Assembly (NCBI RefSeq): GCF_002272945.1
Contig: NZ_NQMN01000002.1
Span: forward strand, 407,059 to 471,058
Reading direction: 5' to 3'
From: Mycoplasmopsis agassizii
Lineage (GTDB): Bacteria; Bacillota_I; Bacilli_A; Mycoplasmatales; Metamycoplasmataceae
DNA: 64,000 nucleotides
Positions 28,669 to 63,029 of this stretch are shown here, piece after piece. Position 1 is the stretch's first letter, and the number at the start of each line of letters is the position of its first letter. A model generated the notes under the pieces. It was not told the DNA's origin and searched no databases. It saw nothing but the letters and a program-made list of their open reading frames with translations. The position numbers were made by a program, and so were the translations under genes.

Positions 28669-30912
28669 ATGAATAAAAAAATTTATATTGAAAATCTAAC
28701 TTACTTTGATACTGGTCATAATAAAAAACCTATTAAAAAAATTTCTAGGTTAGAAACTAAAAGTGGCGAATTCAATGTTTTAGTTGGTGATGAAGATCTT
28801 GAAATTTTAAAAAACAAAAGCCTTTTAAATAAATTTAAAGGCAGCAGTTTTTTTATTGACGAAAATTTTAATTTTGTCAACTTACTTAAAAATCCTAAAA
28901 CTGAAATTGCTTTTTTAGAAGATAGTGAAATTTATAAACTGGCTGATGATGATTTAATCATTAATCACTTTTTAAGTAATGCTCGTAAAACTAAATGAAG
29001 TTGATCTAGATTTTTAACACTAACTAAATTAGCTAAAAACCACCGTAAGTTATTTGCAAAAAAATATATTATGGTTTTTAATGACTTAAATAAAAATATT
29101 TCAGATGCAATTGCTTTATCTGTTGAATTTAATTCTAAGCATGATTTTACTCGTAAAATTGATCCTGTACTTTTTAAAGGATTCGTTGAAAAAGTTTATG
29201 ACACAAGAATTGAATTACTGTTAAATATTTTAAATTCAATTAATAACTACTGGCAATTTTATTCAAGAATAAAATCAATTTCAAATAAAGATTTATTAGT
29301 TGTCGATGGACAAAAAATTGAAAACTATAAAGAGAAACTTGAAGAGTTAAAAAAGATTTCTAAAATCAACCGTTCATATATTGCAAAGTTAGAAGAGATC
29401 AATAGATTAAAAACTAATTTTCAACTTGAAAAGAAAAACTTTTTATTTAATCTAAAAATTTCTGAAACACAGTTTATTAAATATTTAAAAACTATTAAAA
29501 ACAATTACAAAGTTTATTGAAAAATTTGACAAACTGAATCAAAAATAACTTACTTAAAATTGGCTCTAATTCATAAGCATTTTTATTTATTTTTAAAATC
29601 AGAAATGAGCGATTTAATGCATCTTCCTGGAAATGAATTTAATGATTTAAAAGTCAATGTTTATGAATACATTTATGAATTTATAAATAATAATTTATTT
29701 AATTTGAAACCAGAAGATGTGACAGTTGAAAAAATTAAAAAAATCATTAAAGAAGAATTTGATTTTCAAATTATTAAATCATACGTTTCAATTGCTAAGT
29801 CAAATATTAGAAATATGAATTTTGAAAAAAAAGAATTCAAGCGAAAACTAAAAGAAGTCAAAAGCCATAAAGTTAAAAAATATGAAAAGAATTATATTGG
29901 TAAAGATTTAAATACAATCGAATATCAATTAACCAGTGAGATGATTGACTTTGAATGAAAAAAAGAATTTTTAAAAGATAAAGAATTTGTTTATGAAGAT
30001 GTAAATCATGTAAGTAAAAAATATTTAACTTTAGTCAAAAAATATAAATCTGAAATTTCAAAAACAAATAGAAATATTCAAAGTTGTTTATATAAAAATT
30101 CTGAATTAAATAATTGATTTACAACAAATGAAAAAGCAATCAAAATTAAAAAATTAGAACTATTAATTAATGAGTTTTTTGCCATTGCTTCAAGTGGAAA
30201 AAAATTATTCAGAATTCAATCAAAAGCCCTGAATTTACGGCACTTTAAGCAACTTGCATTGCTGGAAAATGTGCTAACTGCAACTGGACAATTTGCAATT
30301 CCTATTTCAGATTTATTAAGTACAATTAAATCTCTAACACCTTTAAAAAGAGAAAAAATTGCTTTCGTAGAAACATCATTAAATGCTAGACCATTTTTAT
30401 TTATTTCGAGAAATTACTCGCAAAAATTTAATCATGAAGAACAAAAACATATTTTTGAATTCATTAAAAAATTTATTCAAAAAAATAATTTTGGTTTTAT
30501 ATTGGTAGATAAAACTAGCGAGCTATTAAAAAAACATGCTAATAATTTATTTATTAATTACGAAAATAAAACAATTGAAATTGGTGATTATCGAGAGGTG
30601 ATTAAAAATCCAATTCACCCTTACAGTAAATATTTAATTGCTAATTTAGCTGTTAAAAAAGATCTAATTAAAACTGGAGAAACAGTTATTAATTCAGGAG
30701 AGATTCCTTCATTCCATAGTTTTAAAGATAATCATAAAGTTTTTTCAACCTTAGATGAATTTATAACTTGATCAAAAATTGATGCAACAAAAGTTATAAA
30801 TTATGTACCTAAAGAAATCATTCACTTAACTTATGGTAACGGAGAAAAAACCCAAATGGTTGATTTAAAAAACGCTGATGTTATTGAAGAAACCGTTTTA
30901 GTAGACATATAA
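28669..30912 (+). CDS. OppF-like ABC protein without ATPase motifs
   Basis: A 747-residue protein whose ends match an oligopeptide ABC ATPase. The start (NLTYFDTGHNKKPIKKISRL) resembles an OppF N terminus. The end (KIAFVETSLNARPFLFISR, FGFILVDKTSEL, EIGDYREVIKNPIHPYSKYLI) follows the Walker B to C-terminal region of OppF. The key residues are lost: FNVLVGDEDLEIL replaces Walker A, FISRNYSQKF replaces the ADEPVSALD box, and VDK replaces the switch His. A 450-residue lysine-rich helical insertion separates the halves. It probably cannot hydrolyse ATP. It is 9 bases downstream of the S-component gene; no oppB, oppC or oppD is present. Confidence 0.6.
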
Positions 30913-30949: not shown

Positions 30950-33172
30950 TTAACTATATTTGGTCGCAATTTTAACAACACCATTTTGTGTTTCTAGGTT
31001 ATATCATCTTCCTGCAGTTAGATAAGGAGTTTGTGATGTTATTAATTTATTTGATTTATTTACTACATTAACTAATTCATTTTCTTGTAGTAATTCATCA
31101 TTATTTAAATCATTTCAAAAGTATAAACTAGGATTATTTTTATTTGCTAAATTTACAAATGCATCACTATATCATGAAACTAAAGTTTCACTTTTAAGTG
31201 TCTGATTTGGATTTAAATCATTGTCACTTGTAAATGATGATTTAACTTTAAATGGAAAATCACTTGCTGAATAATCATCTTTATAATTGATTAATTTAAT
31301 GTCAGTAATTTCATATTTATTTCCATTTTGAATTACTAAACCTTTATATGTTTTGGCTTTTTCTAGATTTAAAAAACCACTAAAACGTACTGTATCAGAT
31401 TGGAATCTGTCTTTTGTTGAGCCTGCAGATCCTGTAGCATTATTTTTAATATACATTAAACTTATTTCATTATTAATACCTAAAGCATTTAAATAAGCGT
31501 TATATAAATCATTAACTTTATTTTTTAAAATTGCTTCGCCCTTAGTTGTTTGTAATGACCCACCATAAACACTATTAGCCATAAGTAATGACGAAGAAAG
31601 TTCGCTTAAGAATTCATAACCTTCGGAAACATTGGTTACTGTTTGGCTACCATTTCTGATTAGTCTTCTATTAATATTTGAGTATAGTTTAACTGCTCTA
31701 CTTCAATCACTCATAAACACGCTTGGATAGTAAAGATTCTCTTTTTGTAGTGATTGTCTACCTCAAATGTTTAAAGTTTGATCACCAACTTCATGAGTAA
31801 AAATTGAAGCAGTTCCTATTTTAGTAAATTCTCTAGCTATTAATTCTGATAAAGAATAATAGTAACGAATATCTGTTAAAGTGAATTCTTGATTAGAATT
31901 TCTGTTTGAACCTTTAACGCTGTTTAAATTACTTTTTTCAGTTTTGAAAACGTATTTATTGTTTCCATACTTTTTAACTAAAGCTTCAACTTCTGGTGAT
32001 TCAGGATTTCCATTAGCAATTAAAAATAATTCACTAGCACTAAAATATTTACCGATAAAATTAAATTCTGGGTTATTGTAGTTTTCGTTTTTATAAGAAT
32101 TATTTAAAGCATTAAATTCATAATTTAAACTTTTAATAAAGGCGTTAACAAAGTCTTTATTGTAAAGTTGATAATCAGTTCTTTTAGCAGTTACTAAATC
32201 TTTTTCATAGTTTCTTTGATTTTGATAGATTTTATAAACTTGATCTGATTTTTCATCTTTAATCGAACGTAAATAAACGTTATCAACATGATGAATATAT
32301 TCATGTTGTAAGGTTCCAAAAATATTTTCAATTCTTTGAATTGTGGTTAATGATTTAGTATCACTTGATAATTCATCATTGGTTTCAAAATAAATACGGT
32401 TATCAGGAGTTGTATAATAACCTTTCGCTTCTTCCATCTTAGTAAAAGGTGTATTAAAGATTAATTCACTGATATATAAGATTTCTGATGTGTAATTTAA
32501 ATGTTTTAATAAGTAATCATTAAATTCTAAAATAGTCTTTTCATCAAAGTAGTATTTACCATTAACTGGAAAGACTACATATTTAATTCCGTATTTACTT
32601 TCTTGAAAAACTAATTTTTTTAGTTTTTCATTAGAAGTAGATAGTTGATATTCTTCATAACGAGGAGCATAACCATATGTTTCACCTTTTAACTTTTCGG
32701 TAGTTAAAGTTTTTAAAGGTGAAACAGTCCCTGGTTCTGAAATAACTTTATTTAAACCAGGGTTTTCCTTAACATTGTTATTAGGATCGCTAGTTTTGTT
32801 TTCACTACCTTTGTTAGGATCTTCTGTTTTAGTTTTATCATCACCTGAAGTGTCACCTGTTTCACCAGTTTTAGGGTTTTGAGAATTATCACCTGTTTTA
32901 TCTGAAGTAGAACCACTAGTAGTTCCTGATTGACTGCTTGAAGAACCTGAAGTACTAGATGTACCAGAACCCTTAGTATTTGAACCTGTTTGGTCGCTTG
33001 AAACATTTGATCCATTAGGTGTTCCTGTAGTATCTGCAGGGTTAACAGGAACGGCAGGATCTGCTTGAGTTAGGGTATACTCGCCATTTGAACATGCTAT
33101 TAAAGTTGCTGCACCAGCAACAGTTGCTAGTCCAGCTAGTGAAAATAATTTGATCTTGGTTTTAATCTTCAT
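30950..33172 (-). CDS. Lipoprotein with HExxH zinc-protease motif
   Basis: A 740-residue surface lipoprotein. The signal peptide MKIKTKIKLFSLAGLATVAG ends at the lipobox TLIAC. A low-complexity Ser/Thr/Gly/Asn linker runs to about residue 145. The folded part holds LQHEYIHHVDN, an HExxH zincin motif (His290, Glu291, His294). Several UGA codons are Trp. I recall similar mycoplasma lipoproteins described as metalloproteases, but I cannot verify the family here. The neighbour upstream is a paralogue in which this motif is lost. A role in cleaving host proteins is an inference. Confidence 0.75.
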
Positions 33173-33348: not shown

Positions 33349-36028
33349 TTATTCGAACTCTACATCAGTTTTATTCAAAATAACTTTTACTTTTGAATCA
33401 ACAGTTTTTAGAGAGTAATTTTTGTATTTACTAATATCTGGTGAATAACGTTTATCAGTTGCTATTAATTTATCTGATTTATTAACTATATTGACTAATT
33501 CATCATCTTGAAGTAGTTGATCCATATTGGTATCATCTCAGAAATATAGAGTTACATCATTACTGTTAGCTAAATGCACATATGCTTCAGCAAATCAAGC
33601 AACTAATAAATCGCTATTGATTGCATTACTTGGATTTCAATAATCTTGAGTTTCTAATGATTTTTTTGCTTTAAATGGAAAATCATTTTCAGAATAATCA
33701 TCTTTAAAGTTTATTAACTTTAATTTAGCCAACTCATATTTATCATCTTTTTTAATTACTAAGCCTTTGTAAGTTTTAGCTTTTTCAAGGCTTAAGTAAC
33801 CACCAAAACCTACATAATCAAGATCGTAACCAATTGTTTTAGTTGATTCATATTTTCCTGAATTTTCTATAACATTGTTTTTAATAGTTATGTAACTAAT
33901 TTCATTATCAAGTTTTAGTTTATCTAGAAATAAGGTATATAAAGCTTGTACTTTATTGTCTAAAGTGATATCACCATTAGCAGTTTTTAAGGTTCCACCA
34001 TAAAGACTATTAGCCATAATTAATTTGGGAACATTTTCATTTTGTTTATTCTTGTTTTGAGTACTAAAGATTTTCACAAAATACTTAGAAAGTAGTTTTT
34101 TAAGAGAAAATTCTCTTCTTACATCTTTAATATCGTATGTATAAAAGCTTCCGTTTTCTTCAATTAGATATTCGTTATAACCAAATCTTTTTACTAGGTC
34201 TTTTACTTCCTTGGTTCTAGGATCACCGTTAGCAATCAAAAATAATTCGCTAGCACTGAATTCTTTACCTATAAAACTATTATAAGGTGCAGCTAATTCT
34301 TCGCCCTTATATGAGTTATTCAACTCATTAAAATGAAGATTCAGTATTTCTAAAAATGATTCCACAAATTTTTTATCAAATTTGTCATAGGATAAAGGTC
34401 TAGAGATACTATCTTCGTAATAGTGTGAATAGTTATTATAGGATATATAAATGCTTTCTTTATTATCAATTTTTTCACCTTTTCATGGGTGTGAAGAACT
34501 ACCAAGATTTATTGAAAAAAGATTCAACATATCATCAACTAATTCTTTTTGTATTATTGAAAGTGTTTTTTCAATTCTTTGTTCAGTCGTTAGTTTTTTA
34601 TCTTCTTTTCAACTTGATTTTGTATTAATATAAAGAATTCCCTTTTCACGATCAAAATATGAATGACTTTTGTCAGGTTGATTAAAAATTATTTCCTTAA
34701 GATCCATTATTTCTACTGAAGAATTAATATTTTTGAGTAAAGACTGTTCTAAGTCTAGAATTGTTTTATAAGTGAAAAAGTAACTTCCAAACCCATAAGT
34801 ACCACGACTTGTTGATCCTGCCCCAGCATATGCACTTGTTCAAATAGACTCATCATTATAAGGTCAAACAGTATAATGAATTCCTAGAAAACCACCTCTA
34901 TAAGACATACCCACACCATCATCATATGAACCCGTACGATCATTTTTTCATCCAATGCTCTTTGGCTCAAAACCGTTACTAAAATCACTACTCAATCTTC
35001 TAAAAGGGAGTGTCTCTGGTTCTTTAGGTTCTGATGGTGTAGTTACTTCTTCCTCTTTATCATCATTTTTATTATCGACATTATCTTTAGCTGATTCATC
35101 ATTATTCTTTGTAAGGTTATCATCTGAATTACTTTCTCCAGAATTACCTGCTTGTTCACTTTGATCACTTTTTTTATTTTCTGATGAATTACCATCAGTT
35201 TCACCTGTATAAGAAACTGAAGTATCTTGATTATCATTAGAACTGCTATCAAAATCTCCACCATCCTTTTGAGATGGTGTAGTTTCATTAGAATCATCTA
35301 GTTGATGATCCTTATTTGGTTCTTCTTTATCTACTTGTTGATCTGATGAATCAGAATTTTTAGTTTCTTGATTATCATTTTCTTGAGATGCTTTTTCATC
35401 CTGAGAACCATCTATTTCTTTTTCAGATGAATCACTATTTTTTGATTCTTCACTATCTTTATTTGAAGTAGATTGCTCTTCATTTTGCTGATTATCAGTA
35501 TTATCTTGAGCAGATTCTTGATCTTGTGAACTATCAGATTGTTTAGAATCTAAATTTGATTCTTCACTATCTTTATTTGAAGTATCAGGCTCTTCAGTTT
35601 TAGTATTATCATTATTATCTTGAGCAAATTCTTGTTCTTGTGAACTATCAGATTGTTTAGAATCTGTTTGAGAATCATTAGAATCATTATTACCTAATTC
35701 ATCACTATTTTTAGTCGAAGTATCAGGTTCTTGATTCTGGGAATTATCATTATTTTCCTGAGAAGGTGTTTCTTCTTTAGAACTGCCTTGCTCAGTTTGG
35801 TTATTATCGTTAGAATTATCTGTATTAGTATCAGATTGATTGTTATCTTCGGGTTTTTCAGTTTTAGAAGAATCTAAATCTGAACCCCCCCCCCATAGGT
35901 GGAGTTAAAATTGGTTCAACTGGTGGGTTAGTAACATTTGTACTTGGTGAACACGCTATTAATGTTACAGTTGCTGCTGATGCAACTGTAACAAGTGAAA
36001 ATAGACCTAGTTTAGTTTTTAATTTCAT
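33349..36028 (-). CDS. Phase-variable lipoprotein, pseudo-protease paralogue (frame off in this sequence)
   Basis: The gene starts with a normal lipoprotein signal peptide (MKLKTKLGLFSLVTVASAATV, lipobox TLIAC). About 45 codons later it meets a run of ten G, after which the reading frame ends at once (GGGFRFRFF, stop). The next frame is open for 840 codons: an Asp/Ser/Asn/Glu-rich repeat region to about residue 330, then a domain like the lipoprotein downstream. Nine or twelve G would join the parts into a protein of about 892 residues. The region matching HEYIHH reads KELVDD, so the zinc motif is gone. The product is absent or truncated in this clone. Confidence 0.8.
35444..35671. repeat. 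Imperfect 114-bp tandem repeat in the lipoprotein linker
   Basis: Near-identical stretches recur at a spacing of 114 bases (for example starting near 35444 and 35558, and near 35524 and 35638). Each codes for a 38-residue Ser/Asp/Asn/Gln-rich unit containing NKDSEES and KQSDSSQ. Being in-frame, copy-number change would vary protein length. Confidence 0.7.
35885..35894. repeat. Ten-base C/G homopolymer (phase-variation switch)
   Basis: Ten consecutive C on the plus strand, G in the mRNA, stand inside the coding region of the lipoprotein gene. The present length puts the 5' and 3' parts of the gene out of frame. Slipped-strand mispairing to 9 or 12 would restore the frame. Confidence 0.9.
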
Positions 36029-36169
36029 AATTTTATATATTCCTTTTACATAATTGATTTTAATCATTATAACCTAAAACAGTTATCTTTAGTTACTAAA
36101 AAGTGGTTAAAAACGACTTTTTAGTAATTTTTAATCTAGATAGGTAGTTAAAGACTAGAAAAATGATAA

Positions 36170-36216: not shown

Positions 36217-37050
36217 TTACTTATTTGTTGTATCAACTATTTGCTCTTTAGATTTATCTTCTAAAGTTAAAACTTTATCTTTATTCGCTTCAACAAGCAT
36301 TGTTGCTAAAGTTTGTTTAATAACTTCAAGTTTGAAATTTTTAGTAAAAAAGACAAAATTGTATCAAAGGTAATTGGTCATGTAAGACATTTCCTGAATT
36401 AATTTTTGATCTCTAGTCTGAATGTCATAACTCTTATTACTGATAATTTTAGCTAGACTAATGCTATCTTTTATTTTGGTTGAAGCATAAAAAGCAGGTA
36501 ATCATCAAAGAAAGATAAAAACTCTAGCTCCAAAGTAGAGATTATTAGAAAAAGGTTCATATTCATCAGGATTAATATCTGCAAATTCAGTTATTAAATT
36601 CAGATCAATTATTGCATTTTCATCAGGCACTTTTTTACGCATTAATAAAATTTTACTAGTAATTAAAGATACAATAATTGATACTATTGTAACTCCTATA
36701 CCCATAGGTAAAAATAAACCAAAGTGTTGAAAATAGATATTTAAAACATCACTATTATCAGATGCTCTGACAGCTAGTGCATAAAATAAAGCAATTACTA
36801 TTGTTAAGATAAATAGTGCAACTGTTCAAAGAAAAACATGATTATTATGGCGTGCATAAACTCTTTTATAAGAAAGATTTATGAATGATTGAGGTAGATT
36901 TGTTTTAGTTAAAATGATTTTCTCATTTCTTCTTATGAATCAAAATCAGAATCATAAATATAGCAAAAGATGCAGGCCTACCAAGGTAACAATTGCAATG
37001 ATATAAAAATAACTTTGTATTTGATTTATTCATAATTGATTTTGATTCAT
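36217..37050 (-). CDS. Four-helix membrane protein, paralogue 1 of the cluster
   Basis: A 277-residue membrane protein of unknown function. Helices lie at about 15-35, 68-90, 108-132 and 185-200. Family marks are the first helix ending LLYLWFWFWFI, SFINLSYKRVYARH after it, and SYMTNYLWYNFVFF near residue 235. It carries many UGA-encoded Trp, which is why the gene is hard to see in a standard-code reading. It is the last gene of three co-directional paralogues and ends at a strong terminator. Confidence 0.7.
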
Positions 37051-37102
37051 TAGTTGATCTCTTTCTCTTTTTACTTTATAAAAGTAAAAAAGCATTTATT
37101 TT

Positions 37103-37948
37103 TTAACTTGTAGGTTCTAAAGTAAATCCATCTTGTTCAGCTTCTCTAATAAGAATACTTAAGTATGTTTTTAATTTGTTAATCTTAAAACTATTTAAAT
37201 AAAAAATGTAGCCATATCAAAGGTAATTTGTCGCTAGTGACAAATTATAAGCAATTAATTTACGCTTTTCTTCATCACTAATTTGCTGATTTTTGATTTC
37301 TTTAATTTTTTCTAAAATTCTTTTGATTTTACTTGGTGCATAAATTGAAGGCAGTCAAAAAATTCATATAAATAGACATACAAGATATAGAGCATCAAAA
37401 GGATTTTTTAAGTTTTCAAAACTATCTCATCTATTTAAGACTTCTTTATGATAGTCACAAAACTTTTTCAAAACTTCAAAGTCATAGTTTGTAATCTCTT
37501 CAGATTTTTTATCTTTTTTATAAAGTAAGTGACTTGTAAGTGCAAATAAGGCAATAAATATTATTGAAATTGCTAGTAAAATAGGCACAAGAATTCCTAC
37601 ATTAATGTAAAGATTAAGTTTAATGGTTGTTGCTTCAAAGTCAACAGCATCAGTAAAAAAACTTATTTCGTTATAAACAACAAGTATAGAAATAATCACT
37701 AAATAAATGTTAAGAGCAATTGACATTAAACTAAAAAATAGTAGATGTCGCTTATAAGTTGCATCTTTTGCATAGTTTAAAAAAGCATCAGTTAAACCAG
37801 TTTTCTTAGGAATTAACTTTTCATTTCGTTTAATAAACAAGATTCAATATCAGATGTAAAACAAAATATTTACACCTATATAAACAGGTATAAATAGTAA
37901 ATAAAATTTTTGATTAGCTGCAACTTGCAGCGCTTCAGTTGTTTGCAT
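37103..37948 (-). CDS. Four-helix membrane protein, paralogue 2 of the cluster
   Basis: A 281-residue paralogue of its two neighbours. After the first helix (FIPVYIGVNILFYIWYWILFI) come LTDAFLNYAKDATYKRH, two central helices, the aromatic helix LFIWIFWLPSIYA and LSLATNYLWYGYIFY. The C terminus ends REAEQDGFTLEPTS, matching REAERHGFVFPTE of the next gene, so these two are the closest pair. The true start is the ATG at 37948; UGA codons in the first helix hide it. An AAGGAAAA site precedes it. Function unknown. Confidence 0.7.
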
Positions 37949-38016
37949 AGTTTTCCTTTTGATCAGTTAAATAATTATTTTTAGATGTCTATATTTTAAT
38001 TGATTAATAAGTTTTA

Positions 38017-38853
38017 TTATTCAGTTGGAAAAACAAAACCATGTCGTTCTGCTTCTCTAATATAGATATTTAATCACCCTCTTACTTGTGCTAGTTTATG
38101 TTCACTTGTAAAAAACATATGACTATATCAAAGGTAATTTGCCATCAGTGATAAGTCGTAAATAATTGCTTGATATTTTTTCTCTTCGCTAACATTTCAT
38201 CTTGGTAATCCAGCAAATATCTCGTAGTAATTTTTAGTTTTAAAACTAACATAAATTTGTGGATATCAAAAAAAGAATTGAAATAGAAAATAGATAAAAA
38301 CTCAGTTTCATAAACCGTTGTGAGATGAATCGATTGCCTTAGATGAATCAATAGGATTTTCATAGTACTGACAAAATCGCTTTAATTCTTCAATATTAAT
38401 AATAATTTCTTTATTAGATTTAGGTTCTTTTTTAAAGAAAATAACACTTGTAATGCTAGATAAAATTATAAAAAATAGCATGTTAGCTAGTGAAATTAAA
38501 CCTAAATGCACTACTGCAGTTGTTAAATATCTAGTTACTTCATAAGTGTCTGCATCAGTAAATAAGTTTGCTTTATAACTACCTAGAGTTAAAGCGATTA
38601 CAAGTATAAGAAGGTTTATAGCGAGTAAGATTAGAGAAAAATAGAAAACATGTCTTCTATAAGTTGCATCTTTTGCATAGTTAATAAAGGCAATAGGAAG
38701 CCCAGTTTTTTTAATCATTAACTTGCGATTTCTGCTTACAAAAACTACTCAAAATCAAAGATAAAACAAAAAACTTGCACCTATTAAAATTGGTACAAAA
38801 ACCAAAAATAAATTTTGTTCTGCTTGCAATTGCAGTGTTTTAATTTCGTTCAT
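38017..38853 (-). CDS. Four-helix membrane protein, paralogue 3 of the cluster
   Basis: A 278-residue paralogue, first in the cluster. The shared features are helix 1 (LVFVPILIGASFLFYLWFWVVF), LPIAFINYAKDATYRRH, the aromatic helix around FIYFLFQFFFWYPQ, and LSLMANYLWYSHMFF. Both the N-terminal and C-terminal parts are reached only by reading UGA as Trp. The block FINYAKDATY-RH is nearly identical to that of paralogue 2, pointing to recent duplication. Function unknown. Confidence 0.7.
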
Positions 38854-56264: not shown

Positions 56265-59200
56265 TTATTTTTTATTTTCAGGGTTCAAATTAAGTGTCTT
56301 AATATTTTTCTTTTTAAGCATTTCAATTAATTCTAATCTGACATTTGGTCGCTCATTTTCTAATACGTTTGATCGTGCATATGGATCATGTTGCACAAAA
56401 TGATGAGCAGATGTTCGATCTCCACCTTGCAATTCTGGAAGGTAAGAAAAGACAATTGCATAGTTTTTGAAATTAGCATCAACTACCATTGATCCTGAAT
56501 TTCCTGCATTAACTTTTTCGCCTGAGTATAAACTTTCAGTTGCAGTTTTAGTAGTAGTTGTGTATAGTCCATTTTCAGGATTAGATACATGCTTACTTGT
56601 TGGATAATTAACTGAATTTAATTCATTATATCTGCCACCTACATCATAAGGAGCGTAATATTTATCTCATGTTTCTTTGTCTCAATCTCTGAAGAAACTT
56701 TGAGCTATAACATTTGAAACTCCTGAAGTCACAAATGATTCTCTTAGTGAAGAAGTAGCTGTTCTATCTGATGAACGATACGATAAAATTCTGCCGTTTT
56801 CACCTTGTAAGCCTGGATAACCTGCAACATATGAATTAGTGCGATCATCAGTTCTAGGATCTAAATCTAAAGTATTAAATCATGCTTTTTGTTCTGCTTC
56901 AGGTTTTTTCAAAATCTGATGTAAAGCAGGTCATGCTTTTTCAAGATCTGAATCTTTAAAAACCATTTTTAGTAAAACTAAATCAGGGCCAGCAAGTTGG
57001 TAGGTATATGTAAATTGATCTTCTTCTCTTTTCATACCACCGCCTAAAATAACAGAAGCTTGCTCATCACCAGAGCGATAAATATGACCTGCTGTATATT
57101 GAGGCATATAGATAATGCTGTTGATAAAGTTTTTTCTAGTATCTGTCAATCATGAAGGACTTTGATCTGTAGCATTTAATTGTGTATAGTTATTATCCAA
57201 AAACATTGGCTTTTGAAAGCCAACTACTTCCATATCCTGTCTTTGATAAGTTGGGCTTTGCTTTCCTTGTTCAGTAGTAGGGTTTGAAAGAGCACTTGAT
57301 GAAATTGGATCAGTTTTTGAATAATCATCTGTTTCAAATCTATTTCATGTGAATGATGAAAAACCAGAGTTTCTTAATCAACTATTTTGCTTGTTAAAGA
57401 TCTTTTTATTATTAGGTCTATTCTTTTTATTTTCTTCAAGACGACTTTTTGCTAACTTTATTCTATCAGGATAATCTTTAAGTAATTCTTCATAATTTGA
57501 CTCATTCAAATTAGCGTATTTATCTTCATATCAATTAAAATATTTTGCTCAAGTCGCTAAGTCAACTTCTGGTGATAACTTACTATTTTCAAAGACATAA
57601 CCCATTATAAATCTTGAAGCTGTTGTTCCAGCAATCATGCCTATATCTAATACGTGCTTATTAGTTGCAATGATAAATGCGTGTTGGTCTTGTGGTAAGT
57701 TTGGGTCAATAATTTTGTCGACTACTCAAGCTGTACCACCTGTTGCAAGTGACTGATTAAATTTAACTCCACTTGTATCATTTTGTCCAAATCATGAAGA
57801 ATATTTTTGTATCTTAATGTCGGGTTTTAAAGTTTTAAAACCTTCAATATTTCTATCAAATGTTTTCTTAACATTTTCTCATGTTTGATTTTTATCATCA
57901 TCTCAATCATCATTTTCGCTTAATCAACCTCCATATGATCAATTTAATGAAACAGTGCGATCATTAATATGCTTAATGTAATCATAATCATTTTTTAGAT
58001 CTACATTTGCTTTATTTAAATCTATTTTGAAGGACTTATTTTGAGTACCTTTTTTATATGTAACATATAAAGTCATGGTTCCAGTTTTATTATCAATATT
58101 TTCTGCATAGAACATAATGTCACTAATATCTGGATCAACTTGTTCAAATAACTTGTAAGTTTTTTCAACTTCACTAACATTATTTAAATAAATGTGATCT
58201 GATAAAATTGACTTTTGATTCATTCTAATGTCATCGCTTAAAGTTAATAACTTTCAAGCAAGCATCTTAGGATTTTGCCCCATCTCATTATGAGTTACTA
58301 AATATTTTAGTGAATTTAAATTTAATTTAAATTCGCTATTAGCCATTTCAACGGCAGAATCTTTAACTTCTTGAGTTGGTTTAAGTAATTGTGGTGCACT
58401 TGCTATTAAATCTAAATTCATGTTCTTAGGTGGCTTAAGTGCTGCAATTTTACTTAATGATCTTCAAGCAATAAATTTTTGATTGTATCAAAAATTATAG
58501 CTTTGTTCAAAATATGAATCAGGGTTAATTTCAAAACCATTTTTGATAAGTTCATCACGCTGTTTAACAGCTTGACTATATTTATTCTGATTAGGATTTC
58601 ATTCTGGAGCATCTAAATTAGGAATTGCTTTTTGAAAATCATCGTCATTAACTCTGTCTTTGATACTGTCATTTTGCGTTGTTCATTCATTACTTCTAGT
58701 TTCTGTTTTTTTACTTCCAGATAAACTATAAATATATTCATGAGAAGCAGGTTGTTCAGTATGAAGTGTTGTTTTGATTTGATAACCTTGGAATTTTTTT
58801 AAATCAGTTTCAAATTTTTGGACATAAGATTCAGGTGGTTTTGGTGACTGAGAATGACCCGGGTTTGCCTGTTGAGGATTTTGATCAACAGGCTTATCTT
58901 GTTTTGGAGTTTGATTGTCTTTAGTATCAGGAGGATTTTGATCTCCAGGTTTATCTTGTTTTGGAGTTTGATTGTCTTTAGTATCAGGAGGATTTTGATC
59001 TCCAGGTGGGTTGGGGTTGGGTTTATTTTGAACAAGTGTTGCTTGCTTTAAATCAACAATTTTAATTGTGGCAGTTTTTACATCTTGTTCTTTACTTACA
59101 CTTAAATAAACTGATAAAGAAGACTTTGAAACATCGGCAGCAACAAGCGTAACTTTAGAAATTTTATATCCATCTTTCAATGCTTTTTCAAAAGTATTTT

Positions 59201-59450
59201 TATTAGATTCATCTAATAAATTCAAAAAAGATGTTTGTACATCTTTGGTTAAGTTTTGTAGTTTTTCCTTTAGTTTAGATAGTTCCTGATTTGAACTATT
59301 TGTCTTAATTTCTTTAGGTAAACCATCAATAATTGCTTGTGCATTTAAAACAGGTGCAGGTTCATTTTGTTGCGTACAAGCAATTGCTGCAACGACAGCA
59401 AATGATGTAGCAGGCAATGACATAATTGTTAGTAATTTTCTTCTTTTCAT
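56265..59450 (-). CDS. Lipoprotein serine protease, DUF31/MIP type, copy 1
   Basis: A 1061-residue surface lipoprotein. Signal peptide MKRRKLLTIMSLPATSFAVV with lipobox AAIAC; a small N-terminal domain; a Pro/Gln/Asp/Lys linker (about 155-220); then a large domain with a trypsin-like triad: His599 in IIATNKHVLD, Asp823 in AGPDLVLLKM and Ser985 in NAGNSGSMVV. This layout fits the DUF31 family, which includes the mycoplasma immunoglobulin protease MIP. Many UGA codons are Trp. Start is the ATG at 59450 after AAGGA. A run of 15 A lies upstream in the promoter. Copy 2 is directly upstream. Confidence 0.8.
58876..59008. repeat. 57-bp tandem repeat in protease 1 linker
   Basis: A 57-base unit is present in two full copies plus a partial one. 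It encodes PGDQNPPDTKDNQTPKQDK in frame. Copy-number change would lengthen or shorten the linker between the N-terminal and protease domains. The second protease has a different, non-repeated proline-rich linker. Confidence 0.85.
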
Positions 59451-59499
59451 AAACAAATCCTTAAAAGAGTTTTATCTCTCTAATTCAATTTTATTCCCG

Positions 59500-59514
59500 T
59501 TTTTTTTTTTTTTT
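59500..59514. repeat. A/T homopolymer (15) upstream of protease 1
   Basis: Fifteen T on the plus strand, poly-A in the direction of the gene, stand 50 bases before the ATG and directly before CGGGAA and TAAAAT, a possible -10. Length changes would alter promoter spacing. Confidence 0.8.
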
Positions 59515-59626: not shown

Positions 59627-62600
59627 TTACTTTTCAGGATTTAAGTTAAGTGTCTTAATATTTTTCTTTTTCAGCATTTCAATTAGTTCTAACCTAACAT
59701 TAGGTCGCTGATTTTCTAAGACATTTGAACGAGCATAAGGATCTTGTTGCACAAAATGATGTGCTAGTGATTTAGCTCCACCATTCACTAATCCAGGCAC
59801 ATATGAAAAAATAATTGCATAGTTTTTAAAGTTGGCATCTATCACCATTGTTCCTGAATTTCCAGGATGAACCTGATCACCTGAATAAAGACTTTCAGTT
59901 GCTACTCTAGGAGTAACACTGAATAAACCATTTTCTTTATTAGATATTATCTTACTTGCAGGAAAAACTGGGATATTTGCTTCATTAAATTTACCACCTA
60001 AATCATAAGGTGCATAATATTTTTTAAAAGCTATTTCATCTCAATCAGCAAAAAATGTTTGACTAATATTTTCAGAAACACCTTGTGTAAGAAAACGCTC
60101 TCTTAAAGTAGATGTTGCTGCTTTTTCAGGAGTTCGGTATGAAAAAATTCTGTCATTTTCATCACCTGATGCAGGATAACCTGCCATATATGAATTAACA
60201 CGCTCATCTGTATAAGGGTTTAAATCAATTCCATTAAATCATTTTTTCTGCTCTTCTTCAGATTTATGAACTATTTCATAAAGTGCTTTTCAGTATTTTT
60301 TTAAGTCTTCTTCTTTAAAGATCATTTTGATCAAAACAAGGTCAGGACCAAGCAGTTGATGAGTATAGTAATTATTAGTTTCTTCACGTTTTAAGCCACC
60401 ACCTAATCTAGAATCGCCTTGTTCATCACTTGCACGATAAACATGACCGGCACTAAATTGAGGATTATAGATAATGCTATTGATAAAGTTTTTTCTAGTG
60501 TCAGTTAATCATGAAGGACTTTCATCAGTTGCATTTAATTCTGTATAGTTATTGTCTTTAAAAAGTTTACCTGAAAAGCCAACGACATCAAGTGGTAATT
60601 GATGGCGAATTGGAAGTTGATTTTTCTGTGCTTCAGTTAGATTATGAATGTGTTTTGAATCAATTGGATCAGTTTTTGTATAATCATCTGGTTCAAATCT
60701 ATTTCAAGTAAATGAAGTAAAACCAGAATTTTTTAATCAACTACTTTGTCTATTCATGATTTTACGATTTGTTACAATGGCTTGCTCATTTAGTTTAATA
60801 CGATCTTTAATTAGTTCAATTTTATCAGGCTGATCTTTAAACAATTCTTGATAGTTTTGCTTATTTATTGAAGCGTATTTTTCGTTATATCAAGGGAATC
60901 TTTTAACATAAGTTAAAAGATCAACTTCACCTGATAAATGCTCATTTTCAAAAGTGAAGCCATTGAAAAATCTCGAAGTAGTTGTTCCTGCAAACTGTCC
61001 AATATCAATCACATGTTTATTTGTAGCAACAACAAAAGCGTGTTGACCTTGAGGTAAAGAAGGGTCAATTATTTTATCAACTACCCAACCTGTACCACCT
61101 GAACCTGACAGTCTTGTTCACTTAACACCACTTGTATTGCTCTGCCCAAAGTATGAAGAAAATTTTGATGCTTTATAGCTTTCAGGAACATCCTTAAAAC
61201 CTGAAATTCGTTGCTTAAAAATACTATGTAAATTTTTTCAGGTATCATTTTTATCATCATCATATTGATCATTTTCATCAAATCATCCTGCATATTTTCA
61301 AGCAATTGAAAATGAACGATCATTAACATATTTAATGAAATCGTAGTCACTTTTTAATTCGCTATTTTGCTTATTTAGTTCGATTTTAAATGATTTAGAA
61401 GAACCATTCTTTTTATATGAAACATATAAAATCATGTTTCCAGTTTTGTTATCAACTTTTTCAGCATAGAACATAATGTCACTAATATCTGAGTCAACTT
61501 TTTCAAAAAGTTTGTAACTTTTTTCATCTTCGCTTATATTATTTAAATAAATATGGTCTGATAAAACCGTCTTTTTATTTAAACGTATGTCATCACTCAA
61601 AGTTAATAATTTTCAAGCAAACATTTTAGGGTTTTGACCCATTTCATTATGAGTTACTAAGTATTTTAGTGAATTTAAATTGAATTTTAATTCACTATTT
61701 TCCATAGCAACGGCATCTTTTTTAACTTGTTCACTAGGCTCAAGTGGTAAAGGTGCTTCAGCAATTTTATCAATATCTACTTTAGCTGAAGCACTAATTA
61801 AATGTTCAATTGAACGATGAGCAATTAATTTTTGGTTGAACCAAAAATTATAGCTTTGATCATAATTTTGATCAGAATTTATATTAAAACCATTAGCAAG
61901 CAGTTCATCTTTTTGCTTTTTAGCCATGGTATATGTATTCTGATTAGGATTTCATTCAGGAGCATCTAAATTAGGAATTGCTTTTAAAAAATCATTGTTA
62001 TTAAGTTTACCCTTAACAGCTTCATTTTGAACACTTCACTCATTACTACGGGTTGCAGTTTTTTTAGAACCTTCGCTATAAATATCAAAGATATAATCAT
62101 TTTTTTCAGGCTGATCTGTATGTAATTGGGTATTAATTTGATAGCCTTGAAACTTTCTTAAATCAGTTTCAAAGACTTGCACATATGGTTTATCAGGTGG
62201 TTTAGGCTGATTTATTGGTTTTTCTGGTTGACCAGTTACAGGTGGATTAGGTGGCGTAACATCAGTTGGTGGTTTAGAATTTACTGCACCTGGGTCTGCA
62301 GTTTTAGGTGGTTTTGATTTTTCAGGATCGCCATTTTTAGGTGGTTCTTCTGGGTTATCTGATGGCGATGCACCAGTTGGAGGTTTACCTTTTTCAGGCT
62401 GATCAGGTACTTTAGTTGAAGGTGGATTTTGGCTTGAAGTTTGTTTTAAATCGACAATTTTAATTGTCTTATTTTTAACATCTTCAGCATTACTTACACT
62501 TAAATAGATCTGCAAAGATGCACTTGATTTATCTGCAGTTGCTAGAGTAATTTTAGAAATTTTATAACCATCTTTTAAAGCATTTGCAAATGTTTGTTTA

Positions 62601-62845
62601 TTAGTTTCATCTAGTAAATTTAAAAAAGTTGCTTGTAAATCAGTACCTAAATTTTGCAGTTTTTCTTTTAATTTATCTAGCTCTTGATTATCTATATTAG
62701 TCTTAACTTCACTAGGTAAACTATCGATAATTGTCTGTGCATTGATATTAGTTGGAGTAGGTTGTTGACTGCAAGCTATTGCTGCTGAACCAGCAAATGT
62801 TGCAATAGACAATGATAAAATAGTAAACAGTTTTCTTCTTTTCAT
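59627..62845 (-). CDS. Lipoprotein serine protease, DUF31/MIP type, copy 2
   Basis: A 1072-residue paralogue of copy 1. Signal peptide MKRRKLFTILSLSIATFAGS, lipobox AAIAC, N-terminal domain, a proline-rich linker (about 150-225) unrelated to the repeat in copy 1, and the protease domain with the full triad: His611 in VVATNKHVID, Asp835 in LGPDLVLIKM and Ser997 in HPGNSGTMVI. The last 60 residues are almost identical to copy 1 (ARSNVLENQRPNVRLELIEM). A run of 13 A lies upstream. Host immunoglobulin is the inferred substrate from MIP; no companion MIB protein is recognised beside it. Confidence 0.8.
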
Positions 62846-62894: not shown

Positions 62895-62907
62895 TTTTTT
62901 TTTTTTT
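62895..62907. repeat. A/T homopolymer (13) upstream of protease 2
   Basis: Thirteen T on the plus strand, poly-A in gene direction, lie 50 bases before the ATG and just before CGGGCA and TACAAT, a possible -10. The arrangement matches copy 1 except for tract length. Confidence 0.8.
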
Positions 62908-63029
62908 TGTTTTGGCGAAAAAGGCAGAATTTTGCACATTTTTGTAATAAATATGCTTATTTTGAAAATATTGAAAAGTAGGTACATGTTTCTTTTGTTT
63001 ACAAAATATAAAAATATTTTGGTGTGCAT

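What the first reader, a model, noticed from the sequence alone, without database searches (positions are those of the whole stretch)
33349..36028. Lipoprotein gene switched off by a ten-G tract
The signal peptide and the body of this lipoprotein lie in different frames that meet exactly at a run of ten G (35885-35894). The body frame is open for about 840 codons on the far side. Nine or twelve G would fuse them. This is the classical slipped-strand phase switch, here caught in the off state. The unswitched paralogue next door has no such tract, so only one of the pair is variable.
Basis: partly seen in the sequence, partly recalled or inferred. Interest (0 to 1): 0.85.

Follow-up and report, generated by a model that had tools for sequence, protein, structure and literature searches.

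The report
Switched lipoprotein, dead-protease twin
In the tortoise bacterium Mycoplasmopsis agassizii, a gene for a predicted surface lipoprotein is split between two reading frames at a run of ten Gs that is nine in a sister strain, which is likely a reversible on/off switch, and the protein it would control is a relative of the neighbouring predicted protease that has lost the zinc-binding motif and so would probably no longer cut.

Summary
On the minus strand, a lipoprotein signal peptide (ATG at 36028) meets an 851-codon body frame (33349-35904) at ten G (35885-35894). The genome is M. agassizii PS6T. Sister strain 723 has nine G at the same place, and there signal and body are one frame; its body has an in-frame stop further on. 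So tract length differs between strains and the frame follows it, as a slippage switch predicts. The genome has seven other tracts of 8 or more G; five of them also divide two open frames. Poly-G switches at lipoprotein 5' ends are published for M. bovis P68 and M. agalactiae P48-like, so the switch is a new member of a known kind. Its C-terminal body shows the same purifying selection as the neighbour (dN/dS 0.159 v 0.161). The likeliest reading is a phase-variable pseudoprotease. Switching within a population, expression and function are untested; a decaying pseudogene is the main rival.

The parts
33349..36028 (-). whole switched lipoprotein locus, frames not joined in this assembly
35895..36028 (-). 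signal peptide piece with lipobox (MKLKTK...TLIAC-S) up to the tract; this frame stops at 35864
   Evidence: lipobox by eye
35885..35894 (-). tract of ten G at the meeting point of the two frames; nine in strain 723
33349..35883 (-). body of the lipoprotein, 844 codons, open, no start codon in its first 296 codons
35441..35665 (-). two tandem 114-base repeats in the Asp/Ser/Asn-rich linker of the body
34534..34548 (-). place that aligns with the HExxH zinc motif of the family; motif absent here
30950..33172 (-). unswitched paralogue, MYPU_1760 family metalloprotease lipoprotein, one open frame of 740 codons
32291..32305 (-). HExxH zinc motif of the paralogue
36217..38853 (-). three predicted membrane-protein genes related to one another (36217-37095, 37103-37948, 38017-38853), next to the switched gene in PS6 and in 723; not at this place in G121

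Best explanation
The ten-G run at 35885-35894 is likely a slipped-strand switch that would turn a predicted surface lipoprotein on and off, and the switched protein is a paralogue of the neighbouring MYPU_1760-family metalloprotease that has lost the HExxH zinc motif, so probably a pseudoprotease. Shown: ten G here and nine in strain 723 at the same place; two frames here, one frame through the tract in 723; HExxH absent in the three alleles found and present in 33 of 33 other family members checked; purifying selection on the C-terminal body; absence of the switched gene and its membrane-protein neighbours from this place in a third species of the genus. Inferred: replication slippage changes the tract within a population; the in-frame form is exported, lipidated and displayed; the protein works without catalysis, for instance as an antigenic decoy or by binding what the constant neighbour cuts; in the off state only a peptide of 54 residues, with signal and lipobox, would be made.
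For: Frame anatomy. Tract beyond chance (0 of 100 shuffles). Sister strain 723: nine G, frames continuous through the tract. Eight tracts of 8 or more G in PS6, six of them at a junction of two open frames, this one included. The symporter tract (8 G in PS6, frames split) has in 723 a nine-base G-rich stretch with one interrupting base and is in frame. Family: paralogue 261 bits against a cut-off of 175, switched body 95 bits; HExxH in 33 of 33 members checked and absent in the PS6, 723 and P0001 alleles. Of 39 columns conserved in at least 85% of 33 other members the switched copy keeps 22 and the paralogue 35; the losses include the two zinc-motif histidines with the Tyr and His beside them, and the E, R, E of a later helix. 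dN/dS PS6 v 723: body C part 0.159, paralogue 0.161. The three internal indels of the tract-proximal alignment are multiples of three. Precedent: M. bovis P68, M. agalactiae P48-like.
Against: No reads, no population data, no protein data. The 723 copy, though in frame at the tract, has an in-frame stop after 474 codons. The third record starts at an internal Met, and no protein with signal and whole body joined was found in the database (3 hits; only the 7995 candidates sharing most words were scored). Codon-position bias in the start-less stretch is not significant (39/36/52 changes, p = 0.18), and dN/dS of the N-terminal part is 0.456. Both strains were sequenced on one platform in one project (PMC5921776, passages).
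Confidence: 0.7

Rival explanations
1. A duplicate in decay: the frame break at the tract is one of the lesions of a dying pseudogene, not a switch.
For: Active-site residues lost; in-frame stop in the 723 copy; third record annotated only from an internal start; weak codon-position signal near the tract.
Against: 851 codons open in PS6; body C part as constrained as the intact paralogue, dN/dS 0.159 v 0.161; tract kept at the same place in both strains with only its length changed; third allele open for its 519 residues and 97% identical over the matched part; three of three internal indels in threes.
Confidence: 0.18
2. The tract is not a genetic switch but a slippery site: ribosomes or RNA polymerase slip there and make a low, steady amount of full-length lipoprotein from the ten-G gene.
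For: The M. agalactiae P48-like product was detected by mass spectrometry although its G10 tract separates signal and body; its authors left ribosomal shifting open (PMC2824730, passages).
Against: Length differs by one between strains, which slippage of the gene itself explains and which ribosomal shifting does not need.
Confidence: 0.08
3. Sequencing or assembly miscount: ten is an error for nine.
For: Illumina NextSeq500 at 38.5x (PMC5921776, passages); long G runs are hard to count (recalled).
Against: The flanks are unique and the same project and platform gave nine in 723.
Confidence: 0.04

Closest known systems
Mycoplasma bovis P68 (described in PMC2824730, passages read; its original paper not read)
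   Same: Poly-G in a lipoprotein coding sequence, 8 to 10 G among four strains, length tied to full-length translation.
   Different: P68 is a homologue of the P48-like lipoprotein; here the body is a metalloprotease-family paralogue without the zinc motif, beside a copy that has the motif and no G tract.
Mycoplasma agalactiae 5632 P48-like MAGa1620 (PMC2824730, passages)
   Same: Ten G separate signal peptide and lipobox from the body frame.
   Different: Other protein family; there the product was seen by mass spectrometry, here no protein data exist.
MYPU_1760 family metalloprotease, NCBIfam NF045830
   Same: Body aligns with the family and keeps 22 of 39 conserved columns; partial profile match of 95 bits.
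   Different: Below the curated cut-off; HExxH and a second conserved E/R/E set lost; G tract present.
M. hominis Vaa and M. fermentans P78 (poly-A switches; named in PMC2831843, passages)
   Same: On/off frameshift at a homopolymer in the 5' coding region of a surface protein.
   Different: A tracts, other proteins; the passages report measured switching for Vaa and inactivation by loss of one A for P78.

Membership tests
mycoplasma lipoproteins switched by a homopolymer in the 5' coding region (P68 / P48-like kind) | signal peptide with lipobox in one frame, body in another, meeting at the tract | tested here: met
   lipobox by eye
mycoplasma lipoproteins switched by a homopolymer in the 5' coding region (P68 / P48-like kind) | tract length differs between strains and the frame follows it | tested here: met
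   PS6 ten G, 723 nine G, frames split and continuous respectively; two strains only
mycoplasma lipoproteins switched by a homopolymer in the 5' coding region (P68 / P48-like kind) | length varies within a clonal population | not testable with these tools
   no reads available
mycoplasma lipoproteins switched by a homopolymer in the 5' coding region (P68 / P48-like kind) | surface product appears and disappears with tract length | not testable with these tools
   no protein data
MYPU_1760 family metalloprotease (NF045830) | profile score over the curated cut-off (175 bits) | tested here: not met
   switched body 95.3 bits; the paralogue, 261 bits, meets it
MYPU_1760 family metalloprotease (NF045830) | HExxH zinc motif | tested here: not met
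   absent in the PS6, 723 and P0001 alleles of the switched copy; present in 33 of 33 other members checked, 30 of which were the loci kept for high-scoring matches
MYPU_1760 family metalloprotease (NF045830) | common fold | tested here: inconclusive
   models of 75.4 and 76.5 mean pLDDT, not compared with each other; Foldseek no PDB match with E at or below 0.001 for either; VIA-align top rows of both include zinc peptidases but all Z are below 8

The most novel reading that the evidence does not exclude
A mycoplasma duplicated its core surface metalloprotease, let one copy lose the active site while selection kept the rest, and put only the dead copy under a G-tract switch: a phase-variable pseudoprotease that toggles beside a constant enzyme, as a decoy or substrate-holding competitor. 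In the off state the cell would still export a lipidated peptide of about 30 residues, so that 'off' may be a lipopeptide state rather than silence.
Probability: 0.35. Interest if true: 0.65.

Novelty: new member of a known kind. Interest (0 to 1): 0.42.

Why it matters
If true, what a mycoplasma varies on its surface here is not an enzyme but its catalytically dead twin, while the enzyme stays constant. That would separate antigenic display from enzymatic function within one gene pair. It also gives this tortoise pathogen a list of tract loci that can be counted in existing reads. In the open library I found no phase-variable gene described for M. agassizii: 'mycoplasma agassizii' with 'phase variation' gave one paper, whose passage speaks of Mycoplasma in general; 'agassizii', 'lipoprotein' and 'phase-variable' gave none; two genome papers had no passage on it.

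Full report
What is there. The window is G000:C2:407059-471058 of a genome of 1,274,972 bases in 8 contigs. Total length, contig number and a contig of 654,010 bases (the N50 given in the paper) match Mycoplasmopsis agassizii PS6T (PMC5921776, passages), a pathogen of tortoises that reads TGA as Trp. On the minus strand a gene starts with ATG at 36028 (AAAGGA at 36041-36046 by eye). It codes for a signal peptide with a lipobox and stops at 35864. At ten G (35885-35894) another frame takes over, open for 851 codons down to 33349. None of 100 dinucleotide shuffles of the window has such a run. The body frame has no ATG, GTG or TTG in its first 296 codons after the tract and no stop there, against 7 and 51 stops in the other two frames. 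So the first third of the body cannot be translated from a common start of its own.

Does tract length vary? The nearest relative held, G119, is strain 723: its contig C11 has the length of NZ_NQNY01000001.1, 126,437 bases. In the same place it has nine G, with identical sequence for 42 bases before the tract and 13 bases after it. There the signal frame runs through the tract into the body, an open frame of 474 codons in all, then meets an in-frame stop; the same frame goes on for 414 codons. Only these two of the 135 family genomes searched match over the whole body (3 of 135 match at all, the third only over parts, at 34 to 38% identity). A third M. agassizii record, P0001, is 97% identical and 519 residues long but begins at an internal Met. 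Its tract could not be read; this fits separate frames but does not prove them.

Is it one of several? PS6 has ten runs of seven or more G, eight of them of eight or more. Six of these eight lie at the meeting point of two open frames: this gene; another lipoprotein, directly behind its lipobox (13 G); a gene that I name hsdM by eye (9; its best NCBIfam match, a DNA methyltransferase, is far below cut-off); two tandem DNA-methyltransferase-like genes followed by a restriction-like gene (10 and 9; I scanned the first and the restriction-like gene, both below cut-off; the second by eye); and a sodium/solute symporter (8; 174 bits, cut-off 184). One lies inside an open hsdS-like frame (10; name by eye) and one in a stretch without a long frame (8). 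The 723 orthologue of the symporter has a G-rich stretch longer by one, with an interrupting base, and is in frame. Of the two tracts of nine or more in 723, one is at our gene and the other lies directly behind the lipobox of another lipoprotein, in frame. Among 38 related genomes searched for runs of nine or more G, 13 had one; PS6 had six such tracts.

Is it kept by selection? Between PS6 and 723, dN/dS is 0.159 for the C-terminal part of the body (413 codons), 0.161 for the paralogue (733), 0.456 for the N-terminal, mostly low-complexity part (420), and 0.02 for proS (489). The three internal indels of the tract-proximal alignment are multiples of three, but the excess of third-position changes is not significant (p = 0.18). 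These are averages since the two strains parted and cannot exclude recent loss in either.

Origin. In a third species of the genus (G121, unnamed) one family member, with HExxH, lies at this place, between a gene that resembles by eye the MAG1360-family gene of the window (28669-30912) and tRNA-Tyr/tRNA-Gln (window tRNAs). In PS6 the switched gene and three membrane-protein genes lie between these marks; in 723 the same genes lie in the same order beside the paralogue. The nearest membrane-protein gene has no match at E up to 0.001 in G120 or G121. I did not look at this place in G120. So the switched copy probably arose or arrived in the M. agassizii lineage; that it did so by duplication is inferred from its place and similarity.

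How it most likely works. Slippage at the tract would move the body in or out of the signal peptide's frame. In frame, a lipoprotein with a long Asp/Ser/Asn-rich linker and a protease-like domain would be displayed; out of frame, a peptide of 54 residues with signal and lipobox would remain. Since the motif for catalysis is gone while much of the rest is kept, the likely role is display or binding without cutting. These steps are inferred.

Comparison. PMC2824730 (passages) describes ten G separating signal and body of the P48-like lipoprotein of M. agalactiae 5632, and reports from another paper, which I did not read, that M. bovis P68 has 8 to 10 G in four strains with full-length translation tied to tract length. 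PMC9465063 (passages) reports poly-G switching of a methyltransferase in M. agalactiae. So the mechanism is known. A search for mycoplasma, pseudoprotease and lipoprotein gave two papers whose titles concern C. difficile vaccines and antibacterial drugs (listing only), and MYPU_1760 gave none.

Noticed in passing
window 59500-59514 and 62895-62908: Runs of 15 and 14 A (coding strand) in near-identical upstream regions of two tandem lipoprotein genes (56265-59456 and 59627-62845, minus strand): candidates for promoter-type phase variation.
   Followed up: partly
L052:3218-3226 (strain 723): Nine C (coding strand) directly behind the lipobox of a lipoprotein that resembles, by eye, the two A-tract genes of the window; in frame there.
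   Followed up: partly
L039:3481-3493: Thirteen G directly behind the lipobox of another lipoprotein in PS6, with signal and body in different frames.
   Followed up: partly
L039:7801-11480: Genes that look like a type I restriction system (names by eye) with G tracts: hsdM split at nine G, hsdS-like frames at seven and ten G.
   Followed up: partly
L040:1997-6054: Two tandem DNA-methyltransferase-like genes, each with a G tract (ten and nine) in the same late position where the frame changes.
   Followed up: partly
L038:2050-2057: Sodium/solute symporter split at eight G in PS6; in frame in 723, where the stretch is interrupted and of different length.
   Followed up: partly
window 35441-35665: Two tandem 114-base repeats in the linker of the switched lipoprotein, a possible source of size variation.
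   Followed up: no
L051:8962-8964 (strain 723): In-frame stop within the body of the 723 copy, which is otherwise in frame at the tract.
   Followed up: partly
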